From Lacipirellula parvula (GTDB lineage: Bacteria; Planctomycetota; Planctomycetia; Pirellulales; Lacipirellulaceae), in contig NZ_AP021861.1 in assembly GCF_009177095.1 (NCBI RefSeq), positions 2,958,501-3,022,500 of the forward strand: a stretch of 64,000 bases of DNA, written 5' to 3'. The notes beneath the pieces are model-generated. The model had not been told where the DNA came from. It was given only the letters and a program-made list of their open reading frames with translations, and did no database searches. Of this stretch, positions 25,138-33,739 are shown in pieces; position 1 is the first letter of the stretch; each line of letters begins with the position of its first letter. Made by a program: the position numbers and the translations under genes.

Positions 25138-25188
25138 AAATCAGTACACCCCACAGGAGTCGAACCTGTAACCTTCGGATTCGTAGTC
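25138..25188. repeat. attL: 51-bp copy of the tRNA-Arg 3' half
   Basis: Identical base for base to 33689-33739. It contains the T arm, variable loop and half of the anticodon arm on the minus strand, then diverges (tccccgag) from the tRNA sequence after the anticodon stem. It marks the former continuation of the chromosome to the left. Confidence 0.9.
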
Positions 25189-25222
25189 TCCCCGAGACAA
25201 ATAGGTCTGAATAGTATCACGT

Positions 25223-25266
25223 CGCCGAGCCTAGGAATCCCCGCGATTTCTAGGCTCGGCGTCTTT
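25223..25266 (+). terminator. Strong hairpin just inside attL
   Basis: CGCCGAGCCTAG with a following GAA pairs with TTCTAGGCTCGGCG across one bulge, then TCTTTT. It could stop transcription entering the element from the left. Confidence 0.75.
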
Positions 25267-25336
25267 TCATTGATAGGGTCGGATAGCGTCGCGTAGTAGA
25301 ACAGTGGAGGGTTATTGGAGGGTCGTGGAGGGTGAA

Positions 25337-25543
25337 ATGCTAAAGCGAAATCCAGAACCAGAGCCGCCTATTCTCGTCACCCGGCGCGAAGCTGCACGGC
25401 TTCTGGCCGTAACCGAACGCCATCTACAAAACCTTGATAGGGCAGGGGTGTTTAAGCCTGTTCGCTTGGGGACTGCGGTCAGGTATCGACGCTGCGACAT
25501 CGAAGCCACGATTGCCAAGCTGGCGGAAGGCGGCGACCAATGA
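25337..25543 (+). CDS. Helix-turn-helix protein (AlpA/excisionase-like) 1
   Basis: 68 residues from the ATG at 25337, with GGAGGG upstream. The core VTRREAARLLAVTERHLQNLDRAGVFKPVRLGTAVRYRRCDIEATIAKL is the usual winged-helix MerR-like domain of excisionases and AlpA regulators: recognition helix VTERHLQNL, then a wing with RLG and the ending (R/W)-x-(R)-DIE. It overlaps the next gene by the four bases ATGA and is 51% or so similar to it by eye. It likely acts as a recombination directionality or regulatory factor of the element. Confidence 0.75.
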   Translation: MLKRNPEPEPPILVTRREAARLLAVTERHLQNLDRAGVFKPVRLGTAVRYRRCDIEATIAKLAEGGDQ

Positions 25544-25731
25544 AAAAGCCCGAACCCGAAAAGCCGATTCTGCTGAGCCGCAAGGAAACCGCCCGGCTAC
25601 TCGGCGTCAGCGAGTCGCATGTTAAGTCGCTGACGAAGTCCGGCGTGCTGGTTGCGATCCACCTTGGCCGCACCCTGCGTTATCGACGCGACGCGATAGA
25701 AGCCGCCCTGAAGCGACTGGAGGGCCGCTAA
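25540..25731 (+). CDS. Helix-turn-helix protein (AlpA/excisionase-like) 2
   Basis: 63 residues starting inside the stop of the previous gene (ATGA). LLSRKETARLLGVSESHVKSLTKSGVLVAIHLGRTLRYRRDAIEAALKRL is the same fold, with the expected arginine pair in LRYRRDAIE. The tandem pair looks like a local duplication. It is followed by the PEP-CTERM gene 121 bases on. Confidence 0.75.
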   Translation: MKKPEPEKPILLSRKETARLLGVSESHVKSLTKSGVLVAIHLGRTLRYRRDAIEAALKRLEGR

Positions 25732-25852
25732 CGAAACGAAAGCCCCATTCCGATCCGCTGCTCATTTCCCGTCCGGAGGCGTGGCGGCGAAAATTGACCA
25801 CCGTCGCCCGGTGCAATATCCTATTATCTGCACCGCAGAACAGGGGAATTGC

Positions 25853-26560
25853 ATGATCCAGCGAATACTCGCCGCCGCAACGCTACTTGCGGCGCTGCAT
25901 GCCAGCGAAATCTCGGCGGCGACAGTTGACCTAACAACCGCGACGATGGCCGGCCCCGATGCCCATTTGCACGGATCGCTAACCGATGAGGCCCAAGTTA
26001 ACCCCGGCTCATTTTCAATTCTGAAAAGTTTGCCCGCCGCGGGAGGAGTATATGAATTCCGCGGATACCTTGTGTTCAACGTCAGCGGCATCCAAGGCCA
26101 CGTTTCGGACGCGGCGTTATTACTGCCAAACGGGACGCTATCAACCGAAGGTCAGCAAAGCGGTCTTGCAACAATTCAACTGCGTGATTTCTATTCGCCG
26201 GTTACAGAGATTTTTAACCACCCCACGAAAGCAATGTTCGATGATCTCGGTGCAGGAATTCTTTATGGCGAAAACTCAGAGTTTTCTACCTCCGCACCTC
26301 CTACAACTGTGAGGATCATTCCGCTGAACGTTGCGGCGATCACGGCAATCAATTCGCCGATCGACGGCCGGTTTATGATGGGCGTATCCATATCTTCGGA
26401 GGGGCAGCAAGCCCCGTGGTTCCGCTGGCTCAACCTAACGAGAGATGTTCGGAACATTACGTTACGTCTGACCGTCATTCCCGAACCAACTGCCGCCATG
26501 CTTGCCGCTTCTGCGGTGATTGGCTTAGCAGCGCTTCGCCGCAGAGCAGTCACTGCGTAG
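25853..26560 (+). CDS. PEP-CTERM secreted protein carried by the element
   Basis: 235 residues from the ATG at 25853, preceded by AGGGGA. Signal peptide MIQRILAAATLLAALHASEISA, a beta-rich body without known motif (VYEFRGYLVFNVSGIQGHVSDAALLLPNG), and the tail VIPEPTAAMLAASAVIGLAALRRRAVTA, a complete PEP-CTERM signal very similar to that of the chromosomal gene at 24052. It is probably cargo, exported and sorted by a host exosortase. A G/C-rich hairpin follows at 26572. Confidence 0.75.
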   Translation: MIQRILAAATLLAALHASEISAATVDLTTATMAGPDAHLHGSLTDEAQVNPGSFSILKSLPAAGGVYEFRGYLVFNVSGIQGHVSDAALLLPNGTLSTEGQQSGLATIQLRDFYSPVTEIFNHPTKAMFDDLGAGILYGENSEFSTSAPPTTVRIIPLNVAAITAINSPIDGRFMMGVSISSEGQQAPWFRWLNLTRDVRNITLRLTVIPEPTAAMLAASAVIGLAALRRRAVTA

Positions 26561-26571
26561 CGCACAAAAAT

Positions 26572-32210: not shown

Positions 32211-32323
32211 GGGCGCCCGTTACCCATGGGCGCCCGCCACCCCAATGGGCGCCGCCTCCCCGCCTAACCATCTACAAGACTTGGTATTCCGCTCTGTTCC
32301 GATGCGCGTATATTGGGCGCCCG
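32211..32323. repeat. Cluster of GGGCGCCC palindromes
   Basis: GGGCGCCCG occurs at 32211, 32228 and 32315, and a one-base-worn copy (gggcgccgc) at 32247. The first three lie 17 and 19 bases apart. They sit in the noncoding stretch ahead of the integrase-side genes, so they could be iterated protein-binding sites. Confidence 0.6.
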
Positions 32324-32359
32324 TTTGGGTGACCCGAATATCACACCAGCGAGTCGGAA

Positions 32360-32656
32360 ATGGAAATCTGCAAGCTCCGCGGCTTCACGCCGCAGACCCA
32401 GTGGCGCGAAGCTCGCCAGCAATTCGAGCGACGCCATACCCCGCCAACGCTCATCGCCCGAATGGAGGCGTTGGCGCTCGACGACTTCGAACGCCTCTGC
32501 GGCGAGCCTTCGCTGCCAGACGTGCCGAGCATGGTCGACGGCTTCGTTGAAGCCTTGCGCCTTGAAGGCGTCGACCGCGTGTCTCTGGCGATCTACCGCG
32601 AAGCCGTCGAAGGGGTGGTGCAATGGGCGACACAAAGCCTCAAAGCGGCGGCGTGA
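32360..32656 (+). CDS. Hypothetical protein, 98 aa, ahead of the integrase
   Basis: A helical, charged protein (QTQWREARQQFERRH, LIARMEALALDDFERL, MVDGFVEALRLEGVDRVSLAIYREAV). Its 3' end overlaps the next gene by 34 bases, so the two are translationally linked. No domain recognised. In planctomycete elements short genes of this kind often precede the integrase gene. Confidence 0.5.
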   Translation: MEICKLRGFTPQTQWREARQQFERRHTPPTLIARMEALALDDFERLCGEPSLPDVPSMVDGFVEALRLEGVDRVSLAIYREAVEGVVQWATQSLKAAA

Positions 32657-32874
32657 ACTTCAGGTCGCTCGGTTGGTTCACGCTCGCCACCGCTCGGAAG
32701 CTGCTTGGCGACGAGGATTATCGCCAGCTGCGCGAAGCGATTCAGTTCAAGGAAATTCGCATCACGCGGTTTGGCAATGAGTACCTACTCGACCACCAAG
32801 ACTGGTTGGCGTGGGTGGCGAGTCGGTTGCCCGCCGGTCGACATTGTGAAATTCATCTAACTGGAAAGGGCTAA
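32623..32874 (+). CDS. Hypothetical protein, 83 aa, ahead of the integrase
   Basis: ATG at 32623 with AAGGGG upstream. The core FTLATARKLLGDEDYRQLREAIQFKEIRITRFGNEYLLDHQDWLAWV reads like a small DNA-binding wing domain: helix, helix, then RITRFGNEYLLDHQD. It lies 3 bases from the integrase start. It might supply arm-site contacts the integrase lacks. Confidence 0.5.
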   Translation: MGDTKPQSGGVNFRSLGWFTLATARKLLGDEDYRQLREAIQFKEIRITRFGNEYLLDHQDWLAWVASRLPAGRHCEIHLTGKG

Positions 32875-32877
32875 GTA

Positions 32878-33477
32878 ATGAACCAAGCCGCCGCGCAATC
32901 TTGGAAATTGTTCCTGCAGGGGCTTTGGTCAAGCGGACTGCGGCTCGGCGAGGCGATGCTGTTGCGGTGGGACCATCGACCAGGCGGCGTGTCAGTTCAA
33001 CTGGACGGGAAGTATTCTGTGCTGGCGTTCGATGGCGAATCGCAAAAGTCGGGCCGCACTCAGATGGTTCCGCTGGCACCAGAGGCCGTGCAGCTGCTCA
33101 CGCCCCTTCAGAAGTCGAGGGGGTTCGTCTTCGAGCCTCTCACCAAGCGTGGCCTTCCGATGGCGCGAGACCACCAGAAGGCAGGAAAGATCATCGCGAA
33201 GATTGGAGAGGCCGCTAAGGTTGTGACTGACCACGCTGCCGGCCGTACAGCTACGGCACACGACCTGCGTCGAGCGTTCGGAGCCCGCTGGTCAAAGCGA
33301 GTGATGCCGGCCGTCTTGAAGGAGATCATGCGGCATGCTGACATCCAGACGACCATGACGTACTACGTCACGCAAAACGCCAAGGTCACCGCGAGCGAGC
33401 TTTGGGCAGCCGCTACTCCATCAGAGCAGCGTCTCGAAACGCCTCAGCCAGAGGAAGACGCTCGTCCTTCGCCCTAA
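32878..33477 (+). CDS. Tyrosine recombinase, catalytic domain only
   Basis: 199 residues. Catalytic residues: Arg in SGLRLGEAMLL near 22-32, the H-x-x-R box in TAHDLRRAFGARWS, histidine in IMRHADIQTT and the nucleophile tyrosine in TMTYYVTQ. The protein starts about 20 residues before the first arginine, so the SAM-like core-binding and arm-binding domains of full-length integrases are missing. Start has GGAAAGGG nearby. Its 3' end overlaps the minus-strand gene at 33413 by 65 bases. It is 212 bases from the right att site, the typical place for the integrase. Confidence 0.82.
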   Translation: MNQAAAQSWKLFLQGLWSSGLRLGEAMLLRWDHRPGGVSVQLDGKYSVLAFDGESQKSGRTQMVPLAPEAVQLLTPLQKSRGFVFEPLTKRGLPMARDHQKAGKIIAKIGEAAKVVTDHAAGRTATAHDLRRAFGARWSKRVMPAVLKEIMRHADIQTTMTYYVTQNAKVTASELWAAATPSEQRLETPQPEEDARPSP

Positions 33478-33643
33478 TGATCGCTAGGTCGAACTTATCT
33501 AACTCACCAGTTGCAACCTTGCCATCGGCAAGCGTGACCGTCAGGCTCTTCCCAATTACCTGGACGACGCAATCGAGATGACCAGCGTCGGCCAGAATGG
33601 CCTGAAGCTTCTCACGATCGGCGAATGGATCGCTTGTTGCCAT
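33413..33643 (-). CDS. Hypothetical protein, 76 aa, at the element's right end
   Basis: ATG at 33643, with a weak ribosome binding region; an alternative start is at 33667. KLQAILADAGHLDCVVQVIGKSLTVTLADGKVATGELDKFDLAIIRAKDERLPLAEAF reads as a small beta-rich protein with a C-terminal helix. It overlaps the recombinase gene's end and lies next to attR. No family recognised. Confidence 0.4.
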   Translation of the reverse strand: MATSDPFADREKLQAILADAGHLDCVVQVIGKSLTVTLADGKVATGELDKFDLAIIRAKDERLPLAEAFRDAALME

Positions 33644-33688
33644 ACACCCAAGAGAGTTGGGTAACATTTTGGGTAACAGAGACCCAAG

Positions 33689-33739
33689 AAATCAGTACAC
33701 CCCACAGGAGTCGAACCTGTAACCTTCGGATTCGTAGTC
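33689..33739. repeat. attR: 51-bp repeat within tRNA-Arg
   Basis: Identical to 25138-25188. It includes the intact 3' half of the tRNA-Arg gene; the remaining 5' half (33740-33769) is chromosomal. Confidence 0.9.

What the first reader, a model, noticed from the sequence alone, without database searches (positions are those of the whole stretch)
25138..33739. 8.6-kb element integrated in tRNA-Arg(ACG) with 51-bp att repeats
Two identical 51-bp copies of the tRNA 3' half flank the region, the tRNA is whole only at the right end, and a tyrosine recombinase gene points toward that end. The contents match no element type I know: no structural phage genes, no conjugation genes, no obvious defence system, mostly short unknown proteins, two clearly truncated genes and several HTH proteins. 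This may be a small planctomycete-specific integrative element.
Basis: partly seen in the sequence, partly recalled or inferred. Interest (0 to 1): 0.75.

Follow-up and report, generated by a model that had tools for sequence, protein, structure and literature searches.

The report
Broken mobile element in tRNA-Arg
An 8.6-kb stretch of this Lacipirellula-type chromosome is a real mobile element inserted into a tRNA-Arg gene, but it is a crippled copy: its integrase and replication gene are cut short, while intact relatives across planctomycetes use other tRNA genes and often carry a single phage-tail 'ruler' gene.

Summary
Confirmed: 25138-33739 is one integration unit. Two identical 51-bp repeats flank it, tRNA-Arg(ACG) is whole only at the right end, and a tyrosine recombinase points at the tRNA 3' end. 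It belongs to a planctomycete-wide integrase family. 54 of 75 testable loci abut a tRNA 3' end, and 11 of 12 bounded elements (6.6-18.7 kb), this one included, have repeats starting in the tRNA anticodon loop. Bythopirellula carries an 8.5-kb element at the same tRNA with a full 411-aa integrase. The window copy is defective: its integrase (199 aa) lacks about 200 N-terminal residues, and its primase-helicase keeps only the C-terminus. A colinear 17.3-kb element at tRNA-Ser(TGA) in the same genome keeps the full primase and adds a tape measure gene and an OLD-like protein; two shared blocks are 96-99% identical. Lone tape measure genes recur in several relatives, suggesting satellites that use a helper phage's particles, as reported for PLEs; mobility is inferred, not shown. 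I found no published description of planctomycete phage satellites. Best reading: a decayed, mosaic member of a tRNA-targeting, satellite-like family.

The parts
25138..25188 (.). left att repeat (displaced 3' half of tRNA-Arg)
   Evidence: 51/51 identical to 33689-33739
25223..25261 (.). 12-bp-arm hairpin followed by T-rich stretch just inside the left att; possible terminator
   Evidence: read directly from the sequence; not tested further
25304..25543 (+). HTH_17 excisionase/regulator-like protein 1
   Evidence: PF12728 E=3e-6; PHROG excisionase E=7e-8; 81% identical to the first gene of the tRNA-Ser element
25540..25731 (+). HTH_17 excisionase/regulator-like protein 2
   Evidence: PF12728 E=3e-10; PHROG excisionase E=8e-8
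25853..26560 (+). exported protein with PEP-CTERM-like tail (cargo)
   Evidence: PF07589 E=0.0065, below the Pfam cut-off, on the ORF starting at 25781; 36% to the same-position gene of the tRNA-Ser element
26692..26949 (-). 85-aa unknown protein
   Evidence: coding-like ORF; no PHROG match
27372..27647 (+). small putative DNA-binding protein
   Evidence: 41% to a protein of the tRNA-Ser element; no family match over the cut-off
27861..28067 (+). HTH_17 protein
   Evidence: PF12728 E=3e-10
28114..28683 (+). 5'-truncated primase-helicase (C-terminal part only)
   Evidence: tblastn to residues 447-623 of the 642-aa primase-AAA_25 protein of the tRNA-Ser element, E=1e-13
28955..29590 (+). exported protein (cargo)
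   Evidence: DNA of 28889-29685 is 82% identical to a piece beyond the tRNA-Ser element's distal att
29605..30066 (+). 153-aa membrane protein, a family repeated through this genome
   Evidence: 100% identical copy in the tRNA-Ser element; many partial DNA copies
30072..30305 (-). 77-aa-like protein, paralogue 1
   Evidence: 55% to the product of 30768-30998 over 73 aa
30393..30605 (-). 70-aa ORF
   Evidence: 100% identical in the tRNA-Ser element
30765..31157 (-). 77-aa-like protein, paralogue 2
   Evidence: 77 aa identical in the tRNA-Ser element
32360..32656 (+). 98-aa protein of unknown function
   Evidence: 99% copy in the tRNA-Ser element; only in this genome among 43 family genomes
32623..32874 (+). 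83-aa protein, possibly Xis-like, overlapping the 98-aa gene
   Evidence: 72% and 39% to two small proteins of the tRNA-Ser element; no family match over the cut-off
32878..33477 (+). N-terminally truncated tyrosine recombinase (catalytic domain only)
   Evidence: PF00589; R22, H128, R131 and Y163 kept, relatives carry about 200 more N-terminal residues
33413..33667 (-). 84-aa ORF between integrase and tRNA
   Evidence: ORF list; no family match
33689..33739 (.). right att repeat, inside the whole tRNA
33695..33769 (-). tRNA-Arg(ACG), integration target
   Evidence: ARAGORN

Best explanation
The region is a site-specifically integrated element that has decayed. Inferred course: a circular element carrying an anticodon-loop-specific tyrosine integrase recombined its attP with the 3' half of tRNA-Arg(ACG). 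The tRNA was restored at the integrase end, and a 3' half was left at the far end as the second 51-bp repeat. Its intact relatives have an integrase next to the tRNA, small HTH proteins and a phage-type primase/helicase, and many have one phage morphogenesis gene, most often a tape measure protein. That content suggests they replicate after excision and travel in a helper phage's particles, as satellites do. In the window copy a deletion apparently joined the start of a small Xis-like gene to the catalytic half of the integrase, the primase kept only its C-terminus, and no morphogenesis gene is present. The 29.6-32.8 kb blocks were recently shared with the tRNA-Ser element of the same chromosome. 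The window copy is therefore probably immobile on its own. Shown: boundaries, family, truncations, mosaicism. Inferred: order of events, satellite lifestyle, immobility.
For: Identical 51-bp repeats with the whole tRNA at the integrase end only. Lower GC than the flanks. Related integrases abut tRNA 3' ends in 12 of the 14 related loci checked and in 54 of 75 testable GTDB loci. Repeats of 11 of 12 bounded elements, this one included, start at tRNA nt 29-33. Bythopirellula L230: 8.54-kb element at the same tRNA, 47-bp repeat, full integrase 66% identical to this one. Colinear 17.3-kb element at tRNA-Ser(TGA) with its own 55-bp repeat, holding an intact primase-AAA_25 and a tape measure protein (PF20155 E=1e-22; PHROG E=1e-34). 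Truncations.
Against: No empty site with the same flanks was found. In G005, a genome of the same genus, the left-flank kinase and LEPR-type genes and the right-flank MFS gene lie together without element or tRNA, so the locus has been rearranged in other ways too. The integrase ORF is still open with catalytic residues kept, so activity of the catalytic domain, or help in trans, cannot be excluded. No helper phage is known, and the one large-terminase match in this genome lies in another small region rather than an evident full prophage.
Confidence: 0.8

Rival explanations
1. A complete, still mobile minimal element. The 199-aa catalytic-domain integrase works alone or with the small HTH proteins, or is helped in trans by the other integrases of the genome.
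For: The repeats are still identical. The integrase ORF is open with R22, H128, R131 and Y163 kept. Other family integrases occur in this genome.
Against: All other repeat-bounded relatives whose integrase was called have a full-length protein of about 370-460 aa. The N-terminal half is not encoded elsewhere in 25000-34000. The primase is truncated too. Integrases at tRNA-Arg(ACG) in other genomes (G003, G023, L232) are also broken.
Confidence: 0.1
2. A remnant of an ordinary full-size prophage that lost its structural genes after integration.
For: Phage-type integrase family, also found on IMG/VR contigs of up to about 77 kb. Phage-type primase remnant.
Against: Repeat-bounded relatives with intact integrases that I could delimit are all small (6.6-18.7 kb), though the search reached only 10-60 kb from each integrase. 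The near-identical tRNA-Ser relative is 17.3 kb and its scanned proteins matched no capsid, portal or large-terminase family with confidence.
Confidence: 0.08
3. An integrative and mobilizable element (conjugation-dependent) rather than a satellite.
For: tRNA target, tyrosine recombinase, replication gene, cargo genes.
Against: No relaxase or mobilization family matched in the window ORFs scanned, and none among the tRNA-Ser proteins scanned with Pfam and PHROGs. A search for oriT sites was not made.
Confidence: 0.07

Closest known systems
tRNA-targeted genomic islands of the Islander type (PMC4383910)
   Same: Tyrosine integrase, tRNA target split and restored, displaced fragment marks the far end.
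   Different: Nothing in kind; the integrase here is truncated.
Vibrio cholerae PLE satellites with chimeric tails (PMC12987554)
   Same: Relatives of the window element carry a lone tape measure gene, a replication gene and an integrase. PLEs encode TMP and TAC and put their own TMP into chimeric tails.
   Different: Different host phylum and no relationship tested here. No tail assembly chaperone recognised. The window copy has no TMP. No helper known.
P4-like satellites, PICIs and PICMIs (PMC10803314; general knowledge)
   Same: Small, integrase, replication gene, no full virion gene set.
   Different: No recognised hijacking or packaging genes in the window copy. No helper phage identified.
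Element at tRNA-Arg(ACG) of Bythopirellula polymerisocia Pla144 (L230)
   Same: Same tRNA, 8.54 kb, same integrase orientation, 47-bp repeat, integrase 66% identical.
   Different: Full-length 411-aa integrase; otherwise different gene content.

Membership tests
tRNA-targeted tyrosine-integrase genomic island | direct repeats made of the tRNA 3' part at both ends, whole tRNA at one end | tested here: met
tRNA-targeted tyrosine-integrase genomic island | integrase gene adjacent to and facing the tRNA | tested here: met
   32878-33477 (+) ends 218 bp from the tRNA 3' end; same layout in 54 of 75 relatives
tRNA-targeted tyrosine-integrase genomic island | complete integrase (N-terminal DNA-binding and catalytic domains), as a working island needs | tested here: not met
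   199 aa, catalytic domain only; about 200 N-terminal residues absent. It is therefore filed as a defective copy, not as a working island
tRNA-targeted tyrosine-integrase genomic island | empty site in a close relative | tested here: inconclusive
   flanks not syntenic around the tRNA in held relatives
ICE / integrative and mobilizable element | relaxase or conjugation genes | tested here: not met
   no such family among window ORFs scanned
phage satellite | integrase and own replication module | tested here: not met
   both truncated in the window copy; both intact in the tRNA-Ser relative
phage satellite | genes that redirect a helper's packaging or assembly | tested here: not met
   none matched in the window proteins scanned; tape measure gene in the tRNA-Ser relative
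phage satellite | induction and transduction by a helper phage | not testable with these tools
   needs culture experiments; no complete helper prophage evident near the one terminase match in this genome
PLE-type chimeric-tail satellite | TMP together with tail assembly chaperone | tested here: inconclusive
   TMP in the tRNA-Ser relative; the 154-aa protein upstream of it matches no PHROG; neither is in the window copy
full-size prophage | capsid, portal, terminase and tail modules | tested here: not met
   none matched convincingly in the window proteins scanned

The most novel reading that the evidence does not exclude
The window copy is the wreck of an undescribed, planctomycete-wide group of tRNA-specific phage satellites, many of which carry one virion morphogenesis gene (mostly a tape measure protein, otherwise a large terminase or a head protease/capsid-type protein) and build chimeric particles with helper phages, independently of the PLEs.
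Probability: 0.35. Interest if true: 0.75.

Novelty: new member of a known kind. Interest (0 to 1): 0.42.

Why it matters
The window copy itself is an ordinary decayed island. It leads to a widespread integrase family that marks precise, repeat-bounded small elements at many tRNA genes of planctomycetes, for which I found no description of phage satellites. The recurring lone tape measure gene makes a question testable outside Vibrio: whether satellites re-build helper tails with their own length ruler. The 96-99% identical blocks shared by two elements at different tRNAs also point to recent exchange between elements with different integrases in one chromosome.

Tried and rejected
Split integrase idea: the 98-aa and 83-aa ORFs upstream could have been the missing N-terminal domain. 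Rejected, because both have copies in the tRNA-Ser element, which has a full 414-aa integrase of another subfamily, and no convincing N-terminal homology is found in 25000-34000. Empty-site search with both flanks gave no clean attB. Close relatives of the window integrase in IMG/VR: none with the single protein; 74 more distant ones with the alignment. Plasmids: no match. Wider search for the 98-aa protein: only this genome. Internal tRNA 3'-like fragment of the tRNA-Ser element (2357567-2357591): no source tRNA with up to 3 mismatches. Literature: no paper in the library combining planctomycetes and phage satellites.
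Full report
OBSERVATION. The 51-bp repeats at 25138-25188 and 33689-33739 are identical and coincide with the 3' half of tRNA-Arg(ACG), whole only at 33695-33769 on the minus strand. The repeat covers tRNA nt 31-75 plus 6 bp. About 1e-22 such pairs are expected by chance, and the interior GC (58.7%) is below that of every 8.5-kb flank window tested. The recombinase at 32878-33477 reads toward the tRNA.

WHERE IT IS. The window is G000:C1:2958501-3022500.

FAMILY. Relatives of the integrase in 39 related genomes mostly sit beside a tRNA 3' end: 12 of the 14 loci checked. 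On GTDB contigs, 79 loci were found, nearly all planctomycetal by record title, and 54 of 75 with enough flank have a tRNA facing the integrase stop within 500 bp. Targets include Arg, Leu, Lys, Cys, Phe, Met, Gln, Ser, Pro, Asp and Thr tRNAs. Element ends could be set by tRNA 3' repeats in many cases. In 11 of the 12 elements tabulated (this one included) the repeat starts at tRNA nt 29-33, in or at the edge of the anticodon loop. The exception, at tRNA-Ser(TGA), has a divergent integrase and starts at nt 74. The closest counterpart is L230, Bythopirellula polymerisocia Pla144: same tRNA-Arg(ACG), 8.54 kb, 47-bp repeat, a 411-aa integrase 66% identical to this one, an HTH-type protein shared by many elements of the family and a 415-aa protein related to the primase-like protein of another element.

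THE FULLER RELATIVE IN THE SAME GENOME. A DNA search of the own genome found blocks of the window element (29586-31634 at 99%, 31875-32814 at 96%) at 2357879-2360854. They lie in a 17.3-kb element bounded by 55-bp repeats (98%) at tRNA-Ser(TGA), about 2355948-2373206. Gene order is colinear: two Xis-like HTH genes (81% for the first), a PEP-CTERM-type protein (36%), a small putative regulator (41%), the primase, the 153-aa membrane protein (100%), the 98-aa protein (99%) and the 83-aa protein (72%). Between primase and membrane protein the tRNA-Ser element has about 6 kb that the window lacks: small proteins, a 696-aa tape measure protein (PF20155 E=1e-22, PHROG E=1e-34) and a 497-aa OLD-like AAA/TOPRIM protein.

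DEFECTS. The window integrase aligns only with residues from about 190-210 onward of full-length relatives. R22, H128, R131 and Y163 are kept, but the N-terminal half is absent and not found elsewhere in 25000-34000. The sequence just before and including its start (AACTGGAAAGGG...ATGAACCAA) matches the start of a 66-aa Xis-like gene of the tRNA-Ser element, which indicates a deletion that joined that start to the catalytic domain. The primase matches only residues 447-623 of 642. No morphogenesis gene was recognised. Integrases at tRNA-Arg(ACG) in other genomes are also broken: G003, G023 (next to transposase-like genes) and L232. This tRNA is a repeated target where remnants accumulate.

HOW IT WORKED, AND WHAT IS INFERRED. 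Integration by an anticodon-loop integrase follows from the repeats and the family pattern. The lifestyle is inferred. Relatives carry a replication protein and, in several, one morphogenesis gene: tape measure by PHROG match in G015 (L021), G003 (L026), G017 (L027), own tRNA-Ser(CGA) element A and own tRNA-Ser(TGA), with homologues of the G017 protein in G006 and G019; a head protease/capsid-type protein in G024; a large terminase in G035. Five further G015 proteins matched no PHROG, and one G003 protein has a weak terminase-small-subunit match (E=0.003). PLE satellites of Vibrio cholerae encode TMP and TAC and build chimeric tails (PMC12987554). The resemblance is functional, not a proven relationship, and the window copy has no TMP.

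LIMITS. No empty site with the same flanks was found. In G005 the left-flank kinase and LEPR-type genes and the right-flank MFS gene are adjacent without element or tRNA, while in G003 the tRNA lies about 20 kb from the MFS gene. Gene calls in the relatives come from a simple script. PHROG and Pfam scans covered chosen proteins, not every ORF. Mobility of any member is untested.

Noticed in passing
G000:C1:2355948-2373206 (L061-L062): 17.3-kb element at tRNA-Ser(TGA) with tape measure protein, primase-AAA_25 and OLD-like AAA/TOPRIM protein; it also holds an internal tRNA 3'-half-like fragment at 2357567-2357591, as if two elements had fused.
   Followed up: partly
G000:C1:2373207-2377000 (L062): Further decayed pieces of the same element lineage beyond the distal att, a likely tandem remnant.
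   Followed up: partly
G000:C1:4654131-4680978 (L077, L032): Tandem pair of elements at tRNA-Ser(CGA) sharing an att; the first has a tape measure protein.
   Followed up: partly
window 29605-30066: The 153-aa membrane protein belongs to a family with many partial DNA copies across this genome.
   Followed up: no
window 24052-24678: A PEP-CTERM-type gene lies just outside the left att, beside the PEP-CTERM-type cargo inside; it is absent from the corresponding G005 contig.
   Followed up: no
G000:C1:2231709-2240000 (L311): A recombinase-like 709-aa protein near a lone large terminase and no evident full prophage: another single-morphogenesis-gene region.
   Followed up: partly
L023/L069 (G019 tRNA-Arg(TCT) element): An element of the same integrase family seems to carry CRISPR-Cas adaptation genes (Cas2-like and a Cas4-Cas1-like protein), judged from sequence only.
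   Followed up: no
L244:4701-8938: A 9.5-kb element at tRNA-Lys carries genes that look like a type III restriction-modification pair, judged from sequence only.
   Followed up: no
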